Under the pieces are notes generated by a model that had not been told where the DNA came from, ran no database searches, and saw nothing but the letters and a program-made list of their open reading frames with translations. A stretch of 33,942 bases of DNA. It comes from Gammaproteobacteria bacterium (GTDB lineage: Bacteria > Pseudomonadota > Gammaproteobacteria > Enterobacterales > Alteromonadaceae). Each line of letters opens with the position of its first letter. Position 1 is the stretch's first letter. The stretch is from contig JABXID010000156.1 of NCBI GenBank assembly GCA_013373245.1, positions 1-33,942 on the forward strand. The letters are read 5' to 3'. This document shows, piece by piece, positions 7,331-25,520 of this stretch. Made by a program: the position numbers and the translations under genes.

Positions 7331-7693
7331 ATGAAAAGAATTTTAGCTGTTGACGACTCTGCATCAATGCGTCAAATGGTGAGCTTTACTCTAAAAAAAT
7401 CTGGGTACGACGTCACCGAAGCTAAAGATGGTCAAGAGGCGCTCAACATTGCGCAATCAGCCCAATTCGACGTCATAATTTCTGACGTAAACATGCCAGT
7501 AATGGACGGAATAACGCTTGTAAAAAACCTAAGAGCGTTACCACAGTTTAAATTTACTCCTATTCTTATGTTAACAACCGAATCTGGCACGGATAAAAAG
7601 TCGGAAGGTAAGGCTGCTGGCGCCACAGGTTGGATTGTTAAACCATTTAATCCTGAGCAACTATTGGCCGTTATTAAAAAAGTTGCTCGTTAA
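7331..7693 (+). CDS. cheY: CheY-like single-domain response regulator
   Basis: A 120-residue receiver domain and nothing else. The acidic pair D8-D9, the phospho-acceptor D52 (ISDVNMP), T82/T83 in LMLTTES and K104 in IVKPF are all in place, so it should be a competent phosphoryl acceptor from the CheA two genes downstream. AAGGA is about 9 bases before the ATG. The cluster has no cheZ, so dephosphorylation must be intrinsic or supplied elsewhere. Whether it acts on the flagellar switch or another target cannot be told from sequence. Confidence 0.95.
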   Translation: MKRILAVDDSASMRQMVSFTLKKSGYDVTEAKDGQEALNIAQSAQFDVIISDVNMPVMDGITLVKNLRALPQFKFTPILMLTTESGTDKKSEGKAAGATGWIVKPFNPEQLLAVIKKVAR

Positions 7694-7725
7694 TTGACGA
7701 TATTTGAGCTTTAAAGGAAAAAAGT

Positions 7726-9903
7726 ATGAGTATTGATCTGTCCCAATTCTATGAAGTTTTTATTGAAGAAAGCTTTGAAGGCTTGGATGCTATGGAGGCT
7801 GAATTATTAAATTTAGAGCCTGGCGACGTCGACAGTGAGATTATCAATACTATCTTCAGAGCTGCACACTCGATTAAAGGAGGTAGTGGAACCTTTGGTT
7901 TTATGGCCATCGCTGACTTTACTCATGTGCTCGAAACTTTATTAGATCAAATACGCAATGGACAGCGTGAATTAGAAAGTCAACATGTGGACTTGTTACT
8001 CAAGTCCGTCGATTGTTTAAGAGCTATGTTGGTGGCGATTCAAAATGATGAACCACAGGAGTCTGAGCTTGCGGTAGAGCTAAAAACTCAATTTCAAGCC
8101 ATTTTAGATGGCGAGCAACCAACGTCTCCAAGAATTGAAGAGTCAACAGAAATCAATGATTCTTCAGATACACAATCGAGCTCTGAGTCACAAAGTGTCA
8201 TTACAATTTGGCAAATTTTATTTTCTCCAGAGCCTCACTTATTTAAAACTGGTAATGAGCCACTGTTTCTGTTTGAAGACTTAGAAGATGTTGGTGACAT
8301 TACGGTTCGAGCAAACTTAGAAAAATTACCCGACTTAACTCACCTGTCTCCTGAAGACAGCTTTATTCAGTGGACGATTACCTTGGAGACTGAGGGAGAT
8401 GTTTCTGAGGATAAGATCAAAGAAGTTTTCGAATGGGTTGAAGATGATGCAATCATAGAGATTTCAAAAAAAGCGCAAATTGAGGGGCTAGGCGACGGTA
8501 TTGAAGAGGAAGCTGAGCCATCGACTCAGCAGCAAACACAGTTACCAACTGAATCACCCGTTGAGCCTGAAACTCTAGATACCGCTATTATAAAAGACAA
8601 GCCTGCAGGTGAAGCCGTTAAAACGACACAAGTTAAATCTGCTGACAAAGCCGAAAAGCCAGCTTCTACCAAGTCAGAGTCGGGCTCAATTCGAGTTGGT
8701 ACCGATAAAGTCGACTCGCTTATTAATATGGTTGGTGAGTTAGTTATTACACAAGCCATGCTCAATGAACTTGGCGAGTCTGATGAGTTAGATGCAAATA
8801 AGTTGGCAGCGTTGCGCGAAGGCTTAGCGCAACTTTCTCACAACACCCGAGATTTACAAGAAAGCGTTATGCGCATTCGCATGATGCCCATCAGCTTTGT
8901 ATTTTCGAGGTTTCCTCGTTTAGTAAGAGACATTTCGCAAAAACTGGATAAACAAGTCGAGTTAAAGTTATTAGGAGAACAAACCGAGCTCGATAAAACC
9001 GTGATGGAAAAAATTTCAGATCCTATGGTGCACTTGGTTCGAAATTCACTGGATCATGGTTTGGAAACTCCCGATGAGAGAGCAGCGGCTGGTAAAGGAA
9101 AAACCGGTACGGTGACACTTAATGCCTACCACCAAGGAGGCAATATCGTCATCGAAATTATTGATGATGGCAGAGGGCTAAACACCGAAAAAATTAAACA
9201 AAAAGCGATTGCAAACGGCTTGATAGCCGAAACTGACGATTTGTCGGATGATGAAATTAACGAATTAATTTTCCAGCCCGGCTTTTCAACTGCCGATGCC
9301 GTCAGCGACTTGTCTGGCCGTGGTGTTGGTATGGATGTAGTTAAGCGTAACATTAACGCGTTAAATGGTACTGTCGAAGTAACATCAGTACCAAATGTTG
9401 GCTCTACATTTACTATTCGTTTACCACTTACTTTAGCGATTCTCGATGGCCAGCTTATTACCGTCGGTAAGAATGTTTACATCATTCCGTTAGTTTCCAT
9501 TGTGGAGTCATTACAAATAGATACCCGTAAAGTAAACACCGTGGGTGGCGGATTAGAGGTTTTAAGGCTGCGCGATGAGTATATTCCTATCATGCGATTG
9601 TACGATTTATTTAATCATCATGACGCGCAAACTGAGTTAGAGAATGGCTTGCTGGTGGTTGTTGAAAGTGACAACGAAAAAGTTGGCTTGTTGGTTGATG
9701 AGTTATTGGCGCAACAGCAATTTGTTATTAAAAGTTTAGAAGCGAATTACAAAAAAGTTGATGGCATCTCCGGGGCGACTATTTTAGGCGATGGCAGTGT
9801 TTCCCTAATTGTAGACATATCAGGCTTGATAAAGCTGGCTGGGCTAAAAAAAGCGGGCAAACAAGGTTTAGATTTTGATAAGCCATTGTCGGAGGCAGTG
9901 TAA
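7726..9903 (+). CDS. cheA: Chemotaxis histidine kinase CheA
   Basis: A full-length 725-residue CheA. P1 (Hpt) carries the phosphorylated H48 in AAHSIKGGSGTFGF. A linker region follows, then a P2-like domain (about 160-255, starting at ITIWQILFSPEPHLF) for CheY/CheB binding, and an acidic Gln/Glu-rich linker. P3 dimerisation starts near SIRVGTDKVDSLINMVGELV. P4 is the ATPase, with the N-box HLVRNSLDHGLE and the G-boxes around FSTADAVSDLSGRGVGMD. P5 is the CheW-like regulatory domain at the C-terminus. AAAGGAAA precedes the ATG at 7726. The stop overlaps the start of cheW by one base, so the kinase and coupling protein are translationally linked. Confidence 0.97.
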   Translation: MSIDLSQFYEVFIEESFEGLDAMEAELLNLEPGDVDSEIINTIFRAAHSIKGGSGTFGFMAIADFTHVLETLLDQIRNGQRELESQHVDLLLKSVDCLRAMLVAIQNDEPQESELAVELKTQFQAILDGEQPTSPRIEESTEINDSSDTQSSSESQSVITIWQILFSPEPHLFKTGNEPLFLFEDLEDVGDITVRANLEKLPDLTHLSPEDSFIQWTITLETEGDVSEDKIKEVFEWVEDDAIIEISKKAQIEGLGDGIEEEAEPSTQQQTQLPTESPVEPETLDTAIIKDKPAGEAVKTTQVKSADKAEKPASTKSESGSIRVGTDKVDSLINMVGELVITQAMLNELGESDELDANKLAALREGLAQLSHNTRDLQESVMRIRMMPISFVFSRFPRLVRDISQKLDKQVELKLLGEQTELDKTVMEKISDPMVHLVRNSLDHGLETPDERAAAGKGKTGTVTLNAYHQGGNIVIEIIDDGRGLNTEKIKQKAIANGLIAETDDLSDDEINELIFQPGFSTADAVSDLSGRGVGMDVVKRNINALNGTVEVTSVPNVGSTFTIRLPLTLAILDGQLITVGKNVYIIPLVSIVESLQIDTRKVNTVGGGLEVLRLRDEYIPIMRLYDLFNHHDAQTELENGLLVVVESDNEKVGLLVDELLAQQQFVIKSLEANYKKVDGISGATILGDGSVSLIVDISGLIKLAGLKKAGKQGLDFDKPLSEAV

Positions 9904-10394
9904 TGAGTTTAGGTAATGCGCCAAATTTAGATCTTATTGACAACGTTGAAGATGCTGACGCAGAACTTGTGCAATATCTAACCTTTATGATGGCGGAAGA
10001 AGAGTACGGTATTGAAATTCTATCGGTGCAAGAAATTCGAGGTTGGGAACCGATGACGCAAATTCCGAATACGCCAGAGTATGTAAAAGGGGTCATTAAT
10101 TTACGTGGTACCGTAGTTCCGGTGATTGATTTACGTTTGAGGTTCCAACTTCCGAAAATTGATTACTCTGACATTACGGTTGTGGTGATTGTAAAAGTGC
10201 GTATAGCGGGCAGTGAAAAAATCATGGGTATTGTTGTTGATGCTGTATCTGATGTGTACAGCTTAGAACAACAAGCAGTGAGCGGCGCTCCACATATTGG
10301 TGATGTCGAAAATAAAGAGTTCATTGAAGGTTTAATAAACGTCAATGACAAAATGGTTGTATTACTAGATTTAAAAAAAGTATTGGATATTTAA
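9903..10394 (+). CDS. cheW: Chemotaxis coupling protein CheW
   Basis: A 163-residue CheW adaptor that links the receptor to the P5 domain of CheA in the signalling array. One CheW/SH3-like domain spans nearly the whole protein: YLTFMMAEEEYGIEI, the conserved IPNTPEYVKGVINLRGTVVPVIDLR stretch (quoted in part, residues about 56-80), and the closing INVNDKMVVLLDLKKVL. The ATG overlaps the last base of cheA. The receptor gene follows after 34 bp. Confidence 0.96.
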   Translation: MSLGNAPNLDLIDNVEDADAELVQYLTFMMAEEEYGIEILSVQEIRGWEPMTQIPNTPEYVKGVINLRGTVVPVIDLRLRFQLPKIDYSDITVVVIVKVRIAGSEKIMGIVVDAVSDVYSLEQQAVSGAPHIGDVENKEFIEGLINVNDKMVVLLDLKKVLDI

Positions 10395-10428
10395 CAAGCA
10401 GTTTTAACACGTATAGGTGGTGACAAGC

Positions 10429-13155
10429 ATGGGATGGTTAAGCAATTTATCAAAATCTGCAACAAGCGAAAGTGATTTAGTGCTCAATGCACTTAATAAA
10501 TCTTTAGCTGTCATTGAGTTTGAGCCGGATGGCACGATCATAACGGCCAATCAGAATTTTTTGGCTGCGATGGGCTATCAACTCGCAGAAGTTCAAGGCA
10601 ACCACCATAGTTTGTTTGTTGATATGGAATACGCCGGCAGTGCGGAATATAAAGAGTTTTGGCAAAAATTGGCCCTGGGTGAGGCGTTTGTTGACGAGTT
10701 TTTGCGTTACGGAAAAGGTGGCAAAAAAATATGGATTAGCGCCAGTTATAACCCTGTACTCGACCGAAACAACAAAGTTTTTAAAGTTGTCAAATTTGCT
10801 ACCGACATTACCGCACAAAAAGAAGCAGAAGTTAAAGCACGAGAAACAGCAAACTTTGCCAATATACTAATCGACTGCCAGGCTAATGTGATGGTGGCTG
10901 ATAACGACTTAAATATTGTATTTGTAAACAAACAAGTCGAAAAAATGCTGCAAGCGCGCGAAGATACCATTCGACAAGCATTACCCAATTTTTCAGTGGC
11001 CAATTTAATTGGCACTTGTGTTGACGATTTCCATAAAGAACCCTCACATCAGCGAAAAATGTTAAAAGCGTTAAGCAGCCCTTATGAGACAAAACTGAAA
11101 TTAGCCGGCTTAACCTTTGAACTGATTGCGACACCTTGGCTTGGCACTCAGGGAGAGCGCCTTGGTACGTTAGTAGAATGGCAAGATGTCACTGATGAAT
11201 TGGCGGCGGATGAAGCCAAACGAGAGATCGCGGCAGAAAACTCCAGAATTCGCCAAGCCTTAGATAACGTATCGACCTCAGCTATGGTAGCGGACGCCAA
11301 CAACGTCATCATTTATATGAATGAAGCTGCTGAGCAAATGATGCTGAACGCTGAGTCAGATTTGAAAGCAGATCTGCCTAACTTTGACGCGAAAAGTATT
11401 GTCGGCAATAGCGTCGATGTATTTCATAAAAACCCAGCGCATCAACAAGCGATGCTAGATAAGCTTACGAGTACCTATAAAACGCAAATAACTGTAGGGG
11501 GAAGAACGTTTGATTTAATTGCTAATCCAATTGTTGATGACAAAGATGGTTCTCGTATTGGAACCGTTGTTGAGTGGCAAGACGTGACAGAAGAGCTTGA
11601 ACGTCTGCGGAAAGAAAAAATTCTAGCAGCTACCAACGCTCGGGTTAAACAAGCGTTAGATAATGTAGCTACTTGTACCATGGTTGCCGATGAAAATAAT
11701 GACATAATTTACATGAACGAATCAGTTCATAACATGTTAAAAATTGCTGAGTCTGATTTGCGAAAAGACCTTCCGAATTTTAACGCGGAGCAAATTCTTG
11801 GCAAAAACATCGATGTTTTCCACAAAAATCCAGCACATCAACGCGCCATGCTAGAACGCTTAACGACAACCTATAAAACAGAAATTATTGTTGGTGGTAG
11901 AACATTCTCGTTAACTGCAAACCCTATTATCGATGATGATGGAAAACGTTTAGGGACAGTAGTTGAGTGGTTGGACAGAACGGTGGAAGTATCTATCGAG
12001 AGAGAAGTAGAAGCATTGATTGAAGCTGCGGGGAACGGTGATTTAACAGCTCGGGTGACAGAAGATGATAAAGAAGGGTTCTTTAAGCAATTATCTGCAG
12101 GACTTAATCAAATTGTCAGCATAGCTGAAGGTGTTATTACGGATACCGTTAATATTCTTGATGCATTGGCGCATGGTGATTTAACTAAACGTATAGAAAA
12201 AGATTACGGTGGTACCTTCGATAAACTAAAACGAGATGCAAACGCTACAGCGGATAAATTAACTGAAGTGATTGGTCGTATTGAGGAAGCTGCAAATACG
12301 GTTGCGACTGGGGCTGAAGAAATTGCACAGGGCAATACAGATCTAAGTCAACGTACCGAAGAGCAAGCGTCTAGCCTAGAAGAAACGGCTTCAAGTATGG
12401 AAGAGATGACTTCGACCGTTCGTCAAAATGCTGATAACGCCAGTATGGCTAACGATATGGCTCAAGAAGCTGTATCCAAGGCTTCTTCTGGTGGTGAAAT
12501 CGTCAGTAAAGCGGTTTCAAGTATGGCTGAAATTAATGAATCGAGTAAAAAGATCTCTGACATTATCGGTGTCATTGATGAAATCGCTTTCCAAACAAAT
12601 CTATTAGCACTAAATGCTGCGGTTGAAGCTGCACGTGCTGGTGAGCAAGGTAGAGGATTTGCCGTTGTTGCAGGCGAGGTTAGAAATCTAGCGCAGCGCT
12701 CTGCTGCTGCTGCAAAAGAGATCAAAGATTTAATAAGAGATTCAGTGACTAAAGTTGAGGACGGTACATCACTTGTTAATCAATCTGGTGAGATGCTGAA
12801 CGAAATTGTAGAGTCTGTGCGCAAAGTGAATCAAACCATCGCCGACATCAGCGTTGCGTCGGAAGAACAATCGTCTGGTATTGAACAAGTCAATAAAGCT
12901 GTAGCGCAAATGGATGAAATGACACAACAAAATGCTGCTCTTGTTGAGGAGGCTTCGGCCGCAGGTGAGTCCATGTCAGAACAAGCACGCGCTATGAAAC
13001 AGTTGTTAAGTTTCTTCCAACTGGATGTCAACGCACAAGCGACATTAGCTCCACCTAGAGCAGAGCGTGCGAGTTTAGCCAGCCCAACCAATAAATCGGC
13101 AAAAGCGGTACATACACCGGTTCAAACGGATGATGAAGAGTGGGAAGAGTTCTAG
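10429..13155 (+). CDS. Soluble methyl-accepting chemoreceptor with four PAS modules and CheR-docking tail
   Basis: A 908-residue receptor without any membrane segment, so presumably cytoplasmic. Domains in order: PAS 1 (about 20-130, ending [12 protein letters not shown]), three related PAS-like repeats (about 145-265, 275-395 and 400-515), tandem HAMP units (about 520-620, with GNGDLTARV and HGDLTKRI), then the MCP signalling hairpin with tip [20 protein letters not shown]. The C-terminus is EWEEF, the x-W-x-x-F pentapeptide that tethers CheR. Start is ATG 10429, with AGGTGG seven to eight bases upstream; an in-frame GTG at 10417 lies inside that site. P. aeruginosa Aer2/McpB is the closest described design (PAS, poly-HAMP, GWEEF tail). 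No heme-binding claim is made from sequence. Confidence 0.94.
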
Positions 13156-13158
13156 ACA

Positions 13159-13195
13159 AAAAGAGTAGGTTATTTTTATAGCCTACTCTTTTGTA
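13159..13195 (+). terminator. Rho-independent terminator after the receptor gene
   Basis: An 11-bp perfect stem, AAAAGAGTAGG (13159-13169) with CCTACTCTTTT (13182-13192), a 12-base loop and a short T-rich end. It lies 4 bp after the receptor stop and 70 bp before cheR, so it separates cheA-cheW-mcp from cheR-cheD-cheB. It could lower expression of the adaptation enzymes relative to the signalling core. Confidence 0.75.
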
Positions 13196-13266
13196 TCTCA
13201 AAGTTTTTAGCAAGTTAAAACGGATGAACCTCGGACTCTCGTGTTTTACGCGACTGAGAATAGCTA

Positions 13267-14088
13267 ATGCATGCAAATAAAGAATTTAAGATGACGGATG
13301 CCGATTACAGTTTTATTAGTAAAACTGTATACGATGAGTGCGGCATTGTGCTTAGTCATCAAAAAAAGGACATGGTTTACTCTCGACTAGCCCGGCGTAT
13401 CAGAGCACTTAACCTAAGCGACTTTGCGACGTATTTGGTGTACCTGCAAGACAACAAAGACCAAGAGTTTGCTGATTTTATTAACGCTATCACAACTAAC
13501 TTGACCTACTTCTTCCGTGAGCCACATCACTTTGACTTTTTAAAAAATACGATTGTGCCTCAGATGAAGCAAAATCATCGGCTCGACAAGAGGGTTCGCA
13601 TTTGGTCTGCCGGCTGCTCCACTGGCATGGAGCCTTATTCAATAGCTATGAGCACTATTAAGTCTTTTCCTAAAGATTGGGATTTTAAAATTTTGGCAAC
13701 TGATTTAGACACTAATGTGTTGTCGACTGCAAAAGCGGGTATTTATCAAGGAGACAGTGTGGCAGGTATCGATAATGAGCTGCTACAGACGTACTTTTTG
13801 CATGACGCGCAAGGCGAGCGTTATAAAGCAAAAGATAATTTAAAGAAATTAATAACTTTTAAGCAATTGAATTTGTTAGAACCCTGGCCAATGAAAGGGC
13901 CTTTTGACGTAATCTTTTGTCGAAATGTGGTTATCTACTTCGATTTGGTTACGAAAAACAAACTGTTTGAGCGTTATGCGCAAATGTTACGACCTGATGG
14001 GTATTTGATTCTTGGTCATTCAGAAACATTAAGCCGAGATGTTAGTGCATTTAAAGCGCTCGGCGGCACCATATATCAGAAGGTATAA
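13267..14088 (+). CDS. cheR: Chemoreceptor glutamate methyltransferase CheR
   Basis: SAM-dependent methyltransferase that methylates receptor glutamates for adaptation. At 273 aa it has the N-terminal helical domain, then NLTYFFREPHHFDFL, the SAM-binding RIWSAGCSTGMEPYSIAM, and FDVIFCRNVVIYFD followed by the C-terminal GYLILGHSETL. The beta-subdomain that binds the receptor pentapeptide is expected in this length class and fits the EWEEF tail of the adjacent receptor. Start choice is uncertain: ATG 13267 and the in-frame ATG 13291 both lack a clear ribosome site. The gene follows a terminator and is 3 bp upstream of cheD. Confidence 0.95.
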   Translation: MHANKEFKMTDADYSFISKTVYDECGIVLSHQKKDMVYSRLARRIRALNLSDFATYLVYLQDNKDQEFADFINAITTNLTYFFREPHHFDFLKNTIVPQMKQNHRLDKRVRIWSAGCSTGMEPYSIAMSTIKSFPKDWDFKILATDLDTNVLSTAKAGIYQGDSVAGIDNELLQTYFLHDAQGERYKAKDNLKKLITFKQLNLLEPWPMKGPFDVIFCRNVVIYFDLVTKNKLFERYAQMLRPDGYLILGHSETLSRDVSAFKALGGTIYQKV

Positions 14089-14091
14089 CAA

Positions 14092-14730
14092 TTGAATTTA
14101 GAGTTTAAGCCGGCTTTTCCAGAGTTCAGTCACATTAAGCGTTACGTTGATAAGCAACGGAATATTATAGTGGCTAAAATCTTACCCGGTGAGTTTTATG
14201 TAACTAAACAGGATGAGGCTATTTCGACTGTATTAGGGTCCTGTATTTCTGCATGTATTTGGGATGAAAAAATGGGCATAGGTGGCATGAATCATTTTAT
14301 GTTGCCTATTAAAGGCGACTCGTTTGGTGTAGAGGATTGGCAACATGATAACAGCTACACATGTCGTTATGGGCTGTGGGCTATGGAATATCTTATTAAC
14401 GAAATATTAAAATACGGTGGCTATCGGCAAAATTTAAAAGTTAAGTTATTTGGTGGTGGAAAAGTATTAGCAAATATGACTTCGGACGTGGGTGACAAAA
14501 ACATTGTATTTGCGCAAGAATATATCGAAAATGAAGGCCTCGAGATTGTTAGCTCAGACGTTGGCGGAACTTGGCCTCGTAAAGTGCTGTTTTATCCGAC
14601 AACGGGAAGGGCGTTGGTGAAGAAGCTGCATACTACGCATAACGACACAATTCAGCGCCGTGAGTCTCAATATTTAGATAAATTAGAGCAGCCATCTGCT
14701 GAAGTTAGCCAAGATATAGAATTGTTTTAG
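14092..14730 (+). CDS. cheD: Chemoreceptor glutamine deamidase CheD
   Basis: Converts receptor glutamines to glutamates, acting with CheR and CheB in adaptation. The 212-residue protein shows the CheD core: ISTVLGSCISACIWD with the catalytic cysteine, GGMNHFMLP with the histidine, and KLFGGGKVLANM. The start is TTG at 14092, supported by AGAAGG (14078-14083) 8 bases upstream. A CheD in the cluster is typical of Che2/F7-type systems and absent from E. coli. Six bases separate it from cheB. Confidence 0.94.
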   Translation: MNLEFKPAFPEFSHIKRYVDKQRNIIVAKILPGEFYVTKQDEAISTVLGSCISACIWDEKMGIGGMNHFMLPIKGDSFGVEDWQHDNSYTCRYGLWAMEYLINEILKYGGYRQNLKVKLFGGGKVLANMTSDVGDKNIVFAQEYIENEGLEIVSSDVGGTWPRKVLFYPTTGRALVKKLHTTHNDTIQRRESQYLDKLEQPSAEVSQDIELF

Positions 14731-14735
14731 GTTTC

Positions 14736-15791
14736 ATGATGATAAAAGTATTAATCGTAGATGACTCAAAGCTGGTGCAAAGCTTGATTGCTGAAATCGT
14801 GAATTCGGTGCCGGATATGACGGTCGTTGGCACCGCTGATGATCCGTACGATGCACGAGAAAAAATCAAAGCATTGAATCCTGATGTATTAACGCTTGAT
14901 GTTGAAATGCCGAAAATGGATGGGGTGACTTTTTTAAAGAACTTAATGCGGTTAAGACCTATGCCTGTGATCATGTTGTCAACGTTAACTGCTGAAGGTG
15001 CGCCTATAACTCTGCAGGCCCTAGAAATCGGAGCCGTCGACTTTTTGGAAAAACCTAAAGCCAATCTCGCACAAGCGCTACCAAGGTATACTGCGTTATT
15101 GCAAGACAAAATTCGGGCAGCATCAGTGGCTCGCGTTCGACCGTTTAGTGAAAAAAAACAAGAACCTTCAGAACGTTTATCTTCGCTAGCCAAAAACTGG
15201 CAACATCTTAGCTTTAAAGCGAATCACTTGGTGGCCATTGGCGCCTCTACAGGCGGTACAGAAGCAATCAAAGAAGTGGTAACAAAACTACCAGCGCATT
15301 TTCCACCAGTGGTGATCACTCAGCACATTCCACCAGTATTCAGCACTACATTTGCTAACCGTTTAGACTTGCTCTCTGCGATGAAAGTTTATGAAGCCGA
15401 AGATGGACAAAAAATTGAACATGGCTGTATTTATTTGGCGCCTGGTGATGAACATTTAAAAGTCGTCGCTAAAGGCTCAAGCTTGTATTGCAAGTTAGAA
15501 CACTCGGAACCTGTGAATCGTCACCGCCCATCTGTCGACGTTATGTTCGACTCTCTTCCCGATAATATTGTGAAAAACTGTACTGCCGTAATTTTAACTG
15601 GCATGGGTGCCGATGGTGCCGCTGGTTTAAAACGCCTGAAAGACATGGGCGCATTGACTTTAACTCAAAGCGAGTCGACCTGTGTGGTATATGGTATGCC
15701 GAAGGCTGCCGACGATATGGGCGCTTCAACTAAAAGTGTCGCACTAGATAAAATGACTCAAGCGCTGGTGCAAGCGGCTGTGAAAAAATAG
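14736..15791 (+). CDS. cheB: Chemotaxis response regulator protein-glutamate methylesterase CheB
   Basis: A 351-residue two-domain enzyme that removes receptor methyl groups when phosphorylated by CheA. The receiver domain has D9-D10 and phospho-acceptor D55 (LTLDVEMPKMDG). The methylesterase domain has the serine of IGASTGG, the histidine of TQHIPP and the aspartate of GMGADGA, which form the catalytic triad. Two ATG codons stand in tandem at 14736 and 14739. It is the last gene of the chemosensory operon and is followed by a clear terminator. Confidence 0.96.
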   Translation: MMIKVLIVDDSKLVQSLIAEIVNSVPDMTVVGTADDPYDAREKIKALNPDVLTLDVEMPKMDGVTFLKNLMRLRPMPVIMLSTLTAEGAPITLQALEIGAVDFLEKPKANLAQALPRYTALLQDKIRAASVARVRPFSEKKQEPSERLSSLAKNWQHLSFKANHLVAIGASTGGTEAIKEVVTKLPAHFPPVVITQHIPPVFSTTFANRLDLLSAMKVYEAEDGQKIEHGCIYLAPGDEHLKVVAKGSSLYCKLEHSEPVNRHRPSVDVMFDSLPDNIVKNCTAVILTGMGADGAAGLKRLKDMGALTLTQSESTCVVYGMPKAADDMGASTKSVALDKMTQALVQAAVKK

Positions 15792-22588: not shown

Positions 22589-23371
22589 ATGAGTACCGAT
22601 TCTAGTTATAAATCAGATACAGTAACTTTGCCAAATTCCCCAGTTGTTTTATTACACGGTTGGGGAATGAATAAAAATATATGGCGACCATTTATCGAAC
22701 GTCTGCCTTTAGACATCCAATCGCGCATTGTTACTCTGGATTTACCTGGATTTGGCGACAATGATTGGATCCCTGCACAGTATGATTTACCGTCGCTAAC
22801 GTCATGGTTGGATAAGCAAATATCAGAGCCTTGTATTTTATTAGGTTGGTCTCTAGGTGGTTTGGTGGCTCAGCATTACGCAATTAATCATCCAGATAAA
22901 GTTGCGAGATTAGGTTTGATTGCTTCAAGCCCTAAATTTATGGCAGAAGGTGATTGGCATGGTATTAAACCAGAAACTCTGACCATGTTTTCTGAGCAGT
23001 TAATGTTAAATCACGAGCAAACTATCGAACGCTTTTTAGCAATTCAAGCGATGGGTGCAAAATCTGCGCGGCAGGATATCAAAAATATTCGAGACTTAGT
23101 TTTACAAGCGCCTGTGCCAAACCTAATTGCTTTAGAGCAAGGGTTGCAGTTATTACAATTGGTTGACTTAAGAACTCAGTTTCAATATTTAAGCGTTCCG
23201 GTTGTTGGATTGTTTGGTCGTCTCGATGCGTTAGTGCCTGTTGGTGCCGTTGAGGCCATGCAGCAGTTAAATCCCAATGCCGGGTTAACAGTGTTAAATA
23301 AAGCGTCACATGCCCCTTTTATCTCACATGTCGACGAGTTTTTAACTTGGTTCAATAAAACTGTGAACTAA
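22589..23371 (+). CDS. bioH: Pimeloyl-ACP methyl ester esterase BioH
   Basis: Alpha/beta-hydrolase that releases the methyl group from pimeloyl-ACP methyl ester, the last step in making the biotin precursor chain. It is 260 aa, normal for BioH. HGWGMNKNIW is the oxyanion region, GWSLGG holds the nucleophile S88, GLFGRLDALVP the acid and SHAPFISH the catalytic histidine. A BioH-like lid region with MGAKSARQDI is present. The divergent comF neighbour supports the assignment. Confidence 0.93.
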   Translation: MSTDSSYKSDTVTLPNSPVVLLHGWGMNKNIWRPFIERLPLDIQSRIVTLDLPGFGDNDWIPAQYDLPSLTSWLDKQISEPCILLGWSLGGLVAQHYAINHPDKVARLGLIASSPKFMAEGDWHGIKPETLTMFSEQLMLNHEQTIERFLAIQAMGAKSARQDIKNIRDLVLQAPVPNLIALEQGLQLLQLVDLRTQFQYLSVPVVGLFGRLDALVPVGAVEAMQQLNPNAGLTVLNKASHAPFISHVDEFLTWFNKTVN

Positions 23372-23441
23372 AGCTTTAAAAATCTGTCAAATTGGTTAAT
23401 AATTGTACATGGGTGTAGTTATATTAAGGTAGGGTAGTTTT

Positions 23442-23744
23442 ATGCAAATAGGATCTGTTCCTTCCGCTTTCCAATCTGGGTTGAGTGGTATTCAAAAAGC
23501 CGAGCAAGGTGTTGCTGAAGCTGCTGTGCAAATTAATCGTTTGAACACAGAGCAAGAGCGTGTGGCCGAGGTTCAGGCTGAACCGCAACAAAATACCAAT
23601 GAGGCACCAGAACAACAAGCTCGTCCATCGCTTGAGACTGAAGCTGTTAATTTAATCGTTAATGAAAAGCTGGCAAAAGCCAACAGTAAAGTTATTAAAA
23701 CCGCCGATGAAATGATAGGCACGTTAATCGATACCAAAGTGTAA
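23442..23744 (+). CDS. Minimal flagellar axial-like protein (rod/hook terminal regions only)
   Basis: A 100-residue protein. The N-terminal segment SAFQSGLSGIQKAEQGVAEA resembles the N-terminal D0 helix of rod and hook proteins. The C-terminal segment EAVNLIVNEKLAKANSKVIK, followed by TADEMIGTLIDTKV, resembles the C-terminal D0 helix of FlgE/FlgF/FlgG. Between them is only about 35 residues of Gln/Glu-rich linker instead of the usual surface domains. GGTAGGG is close upstream of ATG 23442. It is 5 bp ahead of the metalloprotease gene, suggesting an operon. No other flagellar gene is near. Function is unknown; incorporation into an axial filament is speculation. Confidence 0.75.
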   Translation: MQIGSVPSAFQSGLSGIQKAEQGVAEAAVQINRLNTEQERVAEVQAEPQQNTNEAPEQQARPSLETEAVNLIVNEKLAKANSKVIKTADEMIGTLIDTKV

Positions 23745-23749
23745 TTAAT

Positions 23750-24688
23750 ATGTCGTTAAATATTTCACCTCACATACCACAGGTTGTCGTTAATTCTTCG
23801 ATACCTAGTACTGAAGCGCTGCAAAAGTCCAATGCGCTGAAAGAGGTGATCCCCCCCGTTATAAAAACAGAAGCTAGCGTACCGCAAAAGTCTCGTGAGC
23901 AAGACACACGCTCGCCTTCTGAAAATGTTACGTACGATAATATTCAATCTAAACCTGACGATAACGTAATACCGGAAGACGATACCCAAACTGGTGACGA
24001 TAGCTCACAGCAAGAACAAGCAAGCTCGCAAGATAATCAAGAAGATAACGAAAGAGAGTCATCAGAACGCTCTGAACAGCAAGAACAAGCGGAGCAAGCT
24101 GAAGTTCGACAAGAAGCCGCCGAACAGAAAGTCATTGATCAATTGGAAGATCGAGACAGAGAAGTTAAAACCCACGAACAAGCCCATGCGGCGGTTGGGG
24201 GGGCGTTAGCTGGAGCTCCGAGCTATCAATATCAAACTGGCCCAGATGGTAAGCGATATGCTGTAGGAGGAGAGGTTTCTATCGATGTCTCGGTAGAAAA
24301 CGATCCAGAAGAAACTATTCGAAAAATGCAGACGGTACAAGCTGCCGCGTTGGCGCCAGCAGAGCCTTCAGCTCAAGATAGAAAAGTCGCCGCACAAGCT
24401 AGCAGAAATATCGCTGAAGCTAGAGCAGAATTAGTGGCTGAATCATCGGCATTGGCAAATGCTGAACAAAAATCTGAACCGGTACAGCCGCAGGTTAATT
24501 TAGCGTCTGACGATTCTCAAGACGAAAATAATGGCGACTCGCAAACGTCACAAGCAAGTAATACAGAATCGGGATTAGCACAGACGTTTATTTCACCTAA
24601 TAACACCAACGCAACAGCTCAAGTGGTTTCTAAAAAGTACGCGTCTTCGTTTCAAACTAAAGAAATCTACTTTAACGCGGTAGCCTAA
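23750..24688 (+). CDS. Putative metalloprotease, SprA-related/CJM1_0395-like family
   Basis: A 312-residue protein of low complexity at both ends: a Ser/Gln/Glu/Asp-rich N-terminal half (about 35-130) and a Gln/Asn/Ser-rich tail. The conserved core (about 130-230) holds VKTHEQAHAAVGGALAG, where H-E-Q-A-H is a zinc HExxH motif, followed by YQTGPDGKRYAVGGEVSIDV and the EETIRKMQTVQAAALAPAEPS block, both typical of this family. No signal peptide is visible. It follows the axial-like gene after 5 bp. Substrate unknown. Confidence 0.82.
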   Translation: MSLNISPHIPQVVVNSSIPSTEALQKSNALKEVIPPVIKTEASVPQKSREQDTRSPSENVTYDNIQSKPDDNVIPEDDTQTGDDSSQQEQASSQDNQEDNERESSERSEQQEQAEQAEVRQEAAEQKVIDQLEDRDREVKTHEQAHAAVGGALAGAPSYQYQTGPDGKRYAVGGEVSIDVSVENDPEETIRKMQTVQAAALAPAEPSAQDRKVAAQASRNIAEARAELVAESSALANAEQKSEPVQPQVNLASDDSQDENNGDSQTSQASNTESGLAQTFISPNNTNATAQVVSKKYASSFQTKEIYFNAVA

Positions 24689-24731: not shown

Positions 24732-25520
24732 CTAGTTCAACTGCAGATAATGACTGTGTTGTTTAAGCCATTGTTTGCTGTTTTTGCAATGATCACAGAA
24801 CTGTTCATTGAGCTGCCAAAACGCTTTGGAATGATCCATATGCACCAAGTGGCTCAATTCGTGGGTGAGTACACAATCCACAACCCATTTAGGAGCGCCC
24901 ATTATTAATGGGTTTATGCGGATCAGTCCTGAGCTATAACAACAGCCCCAGCGCCTTTTATAGACTTTAAACTCAACTCTTTGGCACTTAAGCTTCATCC
25001 GCTTTTCTATTTCATGTGTGCGTTGAAGTACATAGCTTTGAGCTAATTCAGTATATAGCTCAATCAGTTTGCGTTTTATATACGCCTGTTGATTTGTAAC
25101 TCTTGTCGGTAAGAGGATTAATAGTTGTTTATTCTCGTGATCAAATTGCCACTTGAATGCTCGGTCTTGTTGAATTGTTAATTCATAAAATTGACCGTCA
25201 AAAAGCAGTTTAGTGCCGTTTTCGTATTGATGTGGTAATGGTGATACTTTCGTTTGTAAAGCGAGTTTGTTTAACAACCAGCGTTCTTTTGATTGCACAA
25301 ACTGCTCTATATCGCTATGTGTTAACCAGTAGGGGCTGCGAACCGTTATATTGCCTTGTTTTAATTCTAAACTGATGCTTTTTCGTTTAAGACTGACAAT
25401 TAAGTTGAAGGTTATTTGTGTAGTAGACTGAGGTAAGTCGAGCTTAAACTCACCACTTTCCACGAGTTCTTTTCTGCGTGATAAGGGTGAGTTTAATAAT
25501 GATGAAAATGAAGGCAGCAA
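24732..25520 (-). CDS. YgjP/DUF45-type metal-dependent hydrolase
   Basis: A 262-residue protein with the family's zinc site near the C-terminus: LTHELSHLVHMDHSKAFW, i.e. H-E-x2-H followed by H-x3-F-W. WGCCYSSGLIRINP is the other conserved block. Named relatives are E. coli YgjP and the M48-like DUF45 proteins; the cellular substrate is unclear. The frame starts at TTG 25520, immediately after the dsbA stop, with AAAGAAAAT upstream and no ATG near the N-terminus. It is the last gene of a minus-strand run ccoG-srkA-dsbA-ygjP. Confidence 0.85.
   Translation of the reverse strand: MLPSFSSLLNSPLSRRKELVESGEFKLDLPQSTTQITFNLIVSLKRKSISLELKQGNITVRSPYWLTHSDIEQFVQSKERWLLNKLALQTKVSPLPHQYENGTKLLFDGQFYELTIQQDRAFKWQFDHENKQLLILLPTRVTNQQAYIKRKLIELYTELAQSYVLQRTHEIEKRMKLKCQRVEFKVYKRRWGCCYSSGLIRINPLIMGAPKWVVDCVLTHELSHLVHMDHSKAFWQLNEQFCDHCKNSKQWLKQHSHYLQLN

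What the first reader, a model, noticed from the sequence alone, without database searches (positions are those of the whole stretch)
23442..24688. D0-only flagellar axial-like protein paired with a HExxH protease
A 100-residue protein keeps both terminal helices of rod/hook proteins but no middle domain, and sits 5 bp ahead of a HEQAH metalloprotease with long acidic/Gln-rich arms. Neither has a known role. The pairing suggests a processing or assembly partnership.
Basis: partly seen in the sequence, partly recalled or inferred. Interest (0 to 1): 0.5.

Follow-up and report, generated by a model that had tools for sequence, protein, structure and literature searches.

The report
Flagellum-linked mini-rod protein with metalloprotease
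A tiny protein that resembles the ends of flagellar rod and hook proteins is encoded next to a zinc metalloprotease, and in the genomes sampled both occur only where flagellar genes are present, suggesting that both leave the cell through the flagellar export channel.

Summary
Window 23442-23744 encodes a 100-aa protein whose C-terminus passes Pfam's Flg_bbr_C cut-off (24.4 vs 23 bits). Its N-terminal helix matches rod/hook N-termini only weakly. Five bases downstream, 23750-24688 encodes a HEQAH protein of the known SprA-related family PF12118 (141 bits). Pairing is not chance: 75 of the best 80 named PF12118 loci have the small gene directly upstream. In the host's family, 128 of 136 FliD-positive and 0 of 11 FliD-negative genomes carry the protease. 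In a 348-genome phylum sample, every genome matching either profile has rod genes. 'No known role' is not quite right: the C. jejuni PF12118 protein CJM1_0395 needs a flagellum to reach the supernatant (PMC5223770). The partnership is not obligatory: 12 regions read from genomes without PF12118 hold the small gene, and 18 of 46 protease-positive genomes in the phylum sample lack it alongside. Best reading: an accessory operon of flagellar type III export substrates, namely a D0-only axial-like subunit and a soluble zinc protease. Export, insertion into the axial structure and the protease's substrate are inferred.

The parts
23374..23409 (+). Conserved promoter-like element: CTTTAA (23374-23379) followed by the dyad-like box TTGGTTAATAATTGTACA (23392-23409)
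   Evidence: Motif above score 8 upstream of the small gene in 77 of 107 loci against a mean of 1.15 in composition-shuffled controls; the matrix was trained on the same sequences and many loci are related. Only exact copy in the held genome. Promoter role inferred.
23442..23744 (+). Small D0-only axial-like protein, 100 aa
   Evidence: ORF; PF06429 24.4 bits, cut-off 23; family profile A3 matches solved FlgE chains at E 6.9e-5; AF2 model of two helices 5-44 and 64-99, mean pLDDT 67.8
23750..24688 (+). SprA-related (PF12118) predicted zinc metalloprotease, 312 aa
   Evidence: ORF; PF12118 141 bits, cut-off 27.3; HEQAH at residues 142-146
24077..24484 (+). Conserved protease core (residues 110-245)
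   Evidence: AF2 model mean pLDDT 95.6: long helix carrying HExxH, beta hairpin, two helices; 108-row alignment A4
24173..24187 (+). HEQAH motif (residues 142-146), presumed zinc-binding
   Evidence: H142, E143, H146 identical in 108 of 108 rows; candidate third ligands E175 (107 of 108) and D210 (108 of 108)

Best explanation
The two genes form an accessory operon of the flagellum, placed beside bioH rather than in a flagellar cluster. Both products lack a Sec-type signal and are probably carried out by the flagellar type III export apparatus. The small protein keeps little more than the D0 coiled-coil ends of rod/hook proteins, and most likely joins or caps part of the axial structure or rides with exported axial proteins. 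The HExxH protein is a soluble zincin whose probably disordered acidic arms would suit export through the narrow channel; once outside it would cleave an envelope or extracellular target. Shown here: the sequence features, the pairing, and the distribution tied to flagellar genes. Reported for one homologue (C. jejuni CJM1_0395): flagellum-dependent presence in the supernatant. Inferred: export of both proteins here, the site of the small protein, protease activity and its target.
For: Pairing: 20 of 20 loci (the window's own and 19 relatives; the best 20 of 30 matches) and 75 of 80 named loci (the best 80 of 539), gap median 9 bases. Flagellar link: family sample 128 of 136 FliD+ against 0 of 11 FliD- genomes (Fisher p 6e-12, not corrected for kinship); 40 relatives, 30 of 34 rod-positive against 0 of 6 rod-negative; phylum sample, all 46 protease-positive genomes and all 150 with a small-protein profile match are among the 291 with PF00460, though many of the 150 are merely ends of FlgE/FlgG/FlgK. 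In genus g7 the one FliD+ genome (G405) has the protease and four FliD- genomes do not. Axial resemblance: (PF06429 in 44 of 105 homologues at E<=0.01). No Sec-type N-terminus: 0 of 144 protease ORFs and 2 of 155 small-protein ORFs exceed a hydropathy of 2.0 that DsbA and the M14 protein of the window exceed; 143 of 144 protease ORFs and 143 of 155 small-protein ORFs have no cysteine, against 3 of 87 BioH-like. Literature: PMC5223770 (outline and passages).
Against: The genes are not in a flagellar cluster, and no sigma-28 promoter is evident: the conserved element looks sigma-70-like. Small protein and protease occur without each other. The C. jejuni mutant was normally motile, so it is not needed for motility there. 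Eight FliD+ genomes of the family lack the protease. Three loci with the protease (L140, L154, L156; alphaproteobacteria by name) lie in genomes with no A3 match at all; their flagellar status was not tested. PF00460 does not hit the window's small protein. Its structure model is weak (pLDDT 67.8) and its fold matches are no better than unrelated helical hairpins.
Confidence: 0.6

Rival explanations
1. The small protein stays inside the cell as a mimic of an axial D0 region: a co-chaperone or inhibitor that keeps the protease unfolded or inactive until export, much as a propeptide acting in trans.
For: Tight operon with the protease, median gap 9 bases; two-helix hairpin model. A precedent for a co-chaperone beside FliS is the H. 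pylori HP1076 work (PMC7248283; title and start of abstract in a search listing only; its flagellin-like fold is recalled).
Against: Genomes keep the small protein without any PF12118 match, so it must do something else there. PA0505, which I equate with it by recalled synteny only, was captured at the P. aeruginosa cell surface (PMC3511353), though the same table lists ribosomal proteins.
Confidence: 0.2
2. The pair is a flagellum-delivered effector system aimed outwards (at host, prey or competitor proteins); the small protein serves as a piece that docks or plugs the channel.
For: C. jejuni homologue found in supernatant only with a flagellum, and its mutant adheres and invades somewhat less.
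Against: Many carriers are free-living marine genera by name, which argues against a dedicated host effector. No target is known.
Confidence: 0.15
3. Linkage to flagella is indirect: both are general accessory genes of larger, motile marine genomes and are lost together with flagella during genome reduction.
For: All 11 FliD-negative genomes of the family sample fall in four genera (g7, g13, g238, g255); the FliD-positive members of g238 and g255 in the sample also lack the protease, and the g7 and g238 genomes are small.
Against: FliD-negative g255 genomes of 3.3-4.3 Mb also lack the gene; in g7 the single flagellated genome has it; the small protein's sequence itself matches axial proteins.
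Confidence: 0.1

Closest known systems
SprA-related family PF12118 / C. jejuni CJM1_0395
   Same: Same family (CJM1_0395 is called SprA-related in PMC5223770); HExxH signature; the C. jejuni protein was seen in supernatant of wild type but not of flgG mutants
   Different: The window protein has its own long arms and an adjacent D0-only gene; whether Campylobacter has such a neighbour was not tested
Flagellar rod and hook proteins FlgB/C/F/G/E and FlgK
   Same: C-terminal helix profile PF06429; weak N-terminal resemblance; predicted helical hairpin
   Different: Only about 100 aa, no middle domain; PF00460 not hit in the window protein; gene outside a flagellar cluster
FliE / YscI-type small D0-only rod subunits (recalled)
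   Same: About 100 aa, two helices, no middle domain
   Different: No FliE family hit in the Pfam scans; one of 105 homologues hits T3SS_basalb_I, at E 0.0086 only; FliE itself was not compared
Flagellinolysin (flagellin carrying an inserted HExxH domain; recalled)
   Same: A zinc metallopeptidase associated with the flagellum
   Different: There the protease is part of flagellin; here no flagellin domain is found and it is a separate gene

Membership tests
SprA-related PF12118 | Profile match above curated cut-off | tested here: met
   141 bits vs 27.3; 108 of 108 core homologues match at E<=0.01
SprA-related PF12118 | Conserved HExxH | tested here: met
   108 of 108 rows
SprA-related PF12118 | Zincin-type fold | tested here: inconclusive
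   Confident model (pLDDT 95.6) but no PDB match at E<=0.001; best VIA rows, Z 6.7 with 54 aligned (rmsd 1.5) and 63 aligned (rmsd 2.4), cover only the C-terminal part. The zincin prediction in print is PMC3650047 (passages)
SprA-related PF12118 | Proteolytic activity | not testable with these tools
   -
Flagellar axial (rod/hook) proteins | C-terminal Flg_bbr_C profile | tested here: met
   24.4 bits vs 23 for the window protein; 44 of 105 homologues at E<=0.01
Flagellar axial (rod/hook) proteins | N-terminal rod motif PF00460 | tested here: not met
   No hit in the window protein and not among the families matched by the 105 homologues at E<=0.01; one further relative (L165) passes at 21.6 vs 20.7 bits. 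It is therefore described as axial-like, not filed as a rod or hook protein
Flagellar axial (rod/hook) proteins | D0 hairpin of terminal helices | tested here: inconclusive
   Two-helix model, pLDDT 67.8; Salmonella rod chain 7cg0_i Z 9.0, 82 aligned, rmsd 4.1, tied with unrelated hairpins
Flagellar axial (rod/hook) proteins | Exported and built into the flagellum | not testable with these tools
   -
Flagellar type III secreted non-structural proteins | No Sec signal | tested here: met
   0 of 144 protease ORFs above hydropathy 2.0 in the first 40 residues; a crude measure, not a signal-peptide predictor
Flagellar type III secreted non-structural proteins | Flagellum-dependent secretion | not testable with these tools
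   Reported for one homologue only (PMC5223770)
Flagellinolysin | HExxH domain inserted in a flagellin | tested here: not met
   Only PF12118 found in the protease

The most novel reading that the evidence does not exclude
A D0-only axial subunit acts as a docking or gating piece at the tip or a junction of the flagellum that carries and releases a dedicated zinc protease, so that the flagellum of many gammaproteobacteria doubles as a protease-delivery device with its own adapter.
Probability: 0.2. Interest if true: 0.75.

Novelty: new variant of a known kind. Interest (0 to 1): 0.5.

Why it matters
If right, an apparently unstudied and widespread small protein is an extra flagellar axial-type subunit, and a flagellum-dependent protease that I found in print only for C. 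jejuni becomes a general feature of many motile gammaproteobacteria. That would widen what the flagellar export gate is known to carry, and could be tested in ordinary marine or soil laboratory strains.

Tried and rejected
Sigma-28 promoter: the recalled consensus GCCGATAA matched 8 of 8 in 3 of 107 upstream regions and 7 of 8 in 8, against 0.2 and 4.8 expected in shuffles; a slight excess carried by few loci. Seven flagellin ORF rows gave best matches of 6 to 8 of 8 at varying distances, no usable comparison. The strong conserved element is different; with one mismatch allowed the own genome has 2 places, as many as the reversed control pattern.

Fusion of the two proteins: several PF12118 matches run through a stop codon into the upstream ORF (e.g. 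G485, G467, G445; L015). Where I looked (L015, L228) there are two ORFs, and PF12118 is not among the families matched by the 105 small proteins at E<=0.01, so I do not read this as a fusion.

Structure: Foldseek gave no match at E<=0.001 for the protease core in the PDB or viral library, nor for the small protein in the PDB. VIA rows for the protease core include RasP (9a6w, Z 5.1, 90 aligned, rmsd 3.2) and an RseP orthologue (7w6y, Z 5.2, 112 aligned, rmsd 11.3), site-2 proteases by recall, within the range of unrelated rows; a lead only.

Other library hits to the small protein: a portal-protein PHROG (E 0.0037) and a bacterial Ig-like Pfam family (E 0.04), both taken as chance.

Literature: CJM1_0395, SprA-related, PA0505, PF12118, Cj0416/Cj0417 and the phrase 'rod C-terminal domain-containing protein' found no paper on the pair or the small protein's function. 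Searches (six terms; recalled locus tags) led nowhere; two searches were seen as listings only, and PMC7284324 by one passage that names a C. jejuni protein SprA-related. Cj0416 is listed among 42 genes whose N-termini direct secretion by a Yersinia flagellar reporter (PMC2764114, one passage and section 7). That it neighbours the C. jejuni protease gene is recalled gene numbering, not tested.

A count of BioH neighbours was faulty (it summed to 53 of 75 loci) and is replaced. Rows left out: L168 from A3 (105 of 106 non-redundant rows used) and L105 and L136 from A4 (108 of 110); in both, the window copy stands in for L023.

Full report
What is there. The window holds two + strand ORFs five bases apart: 23442-23744 (100 aa) and 23750-24688 (312 aa), between an alpha/beta-hydrolase gene read as bioH (22589-23371) and a YgjP-like metallopeptidase gene on the other strand (24732-25520). 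The window lies on one contig of a 285-contig genome with six PF00460 rod/hook N-terminal matches, so its host has flagellar genes. The closest named loci are Psychrosphaera (L078, L079).

The small protein. Its C-terminal 33 matched residues reach Flg_bbr_C at 24.4 bits (cut-off 23), and the ends of FlgK, FlgE and FlgG models weakly. Of 105 homologues, 44 hit PF06429 at E<=0.01. The family profile finds four solved FlgE sequences at E 6.9e-5 to 2.8e-4; in the two printed alignments both ends align, the N-terminal part not significantly on its own. The N-terminal helix alone is a weak match: among ORFs over 130 aa in a set of 4,831 ORFs, a FlgK-like protein and FlgE rank second and third at their residues 2-31, E 0.19 and 0.12; the first-ranked hit is internal to a long frame that ends in a small-protein match. 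Part of that set had been fetched by the same profile, so it is a biased background; the FlgE of L001 was fetched by PF00460. One relative (L165) passes the PF00460 cut-off. The AlphaFold model is two helices, 5-44 and 64-99, mean pLDDT 67.8. Flagellar rod chains are among its best VIA matches (7cg0_i Z 9.0, 82 aligned, rmsd 4.1) but tied with unrelated hairpins. I therefore call it axial-like, not a rod protein.

The protease. It is a clear PF12118 member. The core is predicted with high confidence (pLDDT 95.6) as a long helix carrying HExxH, a hairpin and two helices. H142, E143, H146 and D210 are identical in 108 of 108 rows; E175 is E in 107 and H in one, which would suit a metal ligand (inference). 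No solved relative was found. The zincin assignment is published (PMC3650047, passages). The arms are Ser/Glu/Gln-rich and acidic.

Pairing. The 20 loci first examined (the window's own and 19 relatives, the best 20 of 30 matches) all carry the small gene immediately upstream, as do 75 of 80 named loci, which are the best 80 of 539 confirmed matches and so lean towards close relatives. The gap has median 9 bases, range -38 to 98, 61 of 75 at most 30. The exceptions are L126 (no ORF matched either profile), L129, and L140, L154 and L156, alphaproteobacteria by name. Of the 75, 62 have a BioH-like and 2 a BioD-like ORF nearby by a simple motif; several of the 11 'others' also show a BioD-like start that the motif missed. 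In the 348-genome phylum sample I count 28 of 46 protease-positive genomes with an adjacent small gene, comparing by eye. Of the other 18, G037, G305 and G374 have a small gene elsewhere, and G259 has a 145-aa protein with a matching end 0.9 kb downstream. I read the protease region locally in 13 of those 18; for G292, G371, G334, G338 and G374 the absence alongside rests.

Not obligatory. Twelve regions from genomes without a PF12118 match were read; all hold a small-protein hit (ten tagged; L162 and L167, hidden there behind overlapping ORFs, are listed). L161, L162, L167 and L168 have it between a BioD-like and an acyl-CoA dehydrogenase gene (families checked for L168 only), and L163/L164 beside an HMG-CoA reductase gene (checked for L163). 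In all, 15 phylum-sample genomes with such small-ORF matches lack PF12118 and all 15 have rod genes. By recalled gene order this is PA0505 of P. aeruginosa, captured at the cell surface in PMC3511353 together with, among others, ribosomal proteins (passages). Two flagellated genomes of the family, G431 and G473, keep the small protein without PF12118.

Tie to flagella. Family sample (147 genomes): PF12118 in 128, FliD in 136; all 11 FliD-negative genomes lack PF12118 and 8 FliD-positive ones lack it too (Fisher p 6e-12). Relatives (40): PF12118 in 30 of 34 rod-positive and 0 of 6 rod-negative genomes (p 5e-5). Phylum (348): all 46 PF12118-positive genomes are among the 291 with PF00460 (p 2e-4), and so are all 150 with a small-profile match, many of which are only FlgE/FlgG/FlgK ends. 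These samples overlap and the genomes are related, so the p values overstate independence. The best single contrast is genus g7, where the one FliD-positive genome (G405) has the protease and the four FliD-negative ones do not; but G405 has no recognisable small gene beside it. In g238 and g255 the sampled flagellated members lack the protease as well. The small-protein profile found nothing in 15 of 15 genomes scored negative for FliD or rod. That is a weak test, since these also lack PF12118: of 13 flagellated genomes tested alongside, mostly chosen for lacking PF12118, only 3 (G431, G473, G408) have a small-ORF hit, 8 show only ends of longer flagellar-type ORFs, and 2 show nothing.

Export. 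No N-terminus of 144 protease ORFs reaches the hydropathy of the window's DsbA and M14 protein, and cysteine is almost absent (143 of 144 have none, against 3 of 87 BioH-like). In C. jejuni, tagged CJM1_0395 was seen in supernatant of wild type but not of flgG mutants, in two strains; its M1 mutant grew and swam like wild type but adhered and invaded less (PMC5223770, outline and passages). This makes flagellar export of the family credible; it has not been shown for the window's host.

Regulation. A conserved element, CTTTAC/A followed by TTGGTTAATAATTAACCA, lies upstream of the small gene in 77 of 107 loci against about 1 in shuffles; training on the same loci and kinship inflate this. Its spacing suggests a sigma-70-type promoter (inference), so control by the flagellar sigma factor is not supported.

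Judgement. One half belongs to a described family with a reported flagellar connection. The parts I found in no paper are the paired D0-only protein, its wide conservation, and the absence of both from genomes without flagellar genes in these samples. Mechanism beyond that is inference.

Noticed in passing
window 7331-15791: A chemotaxis cluster (CheY, CheA, CheW, MCP, CheR, CheD, CheB by sequence reading) ends about 7.6 kb upstream; its conservation near the pair was not tested.
   Followed up: no
window 23374-23409: Strongly conserved promoter-like element with a dyad (TGGTTAATAATTAACCA in consensus) upstream of the small gene; the only exact copy in the held genome.
   Followed up: partly
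L165:4098-4394 (-): A 99-aa D0-only protein that passes the PF00460 rod cut-off (21.6 vs 20.7 bits) and weakly hits PF06429, a possible link between canonical rod proteins and the small family.
   Followed up: partly
L219:5699-6136: A 145-aa protein with a strong PF06429 match (E 1.2e-11) about 0.9 kb downstream of a PF12118 gene, on the same strand.
   Followed up: no
G485, G467, G445 and others: The PF12118 match runs through one in-frame stop into the upstream ORF in several genomes; cause not established.
   Followed up: partly
L232 (G492:C448:11862-12158): The genome of exception L126 holds a weak small-protein match in a 110-aa frame on another contig (E 9.9e-5).
   Followed up: no
window 24077-24484: The protease core weakly resembles RasP and RseP (site-2 proteases by recall) in VIA rows 49 and 45, within the background range; a possible soluble relative.
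   Followed up: no
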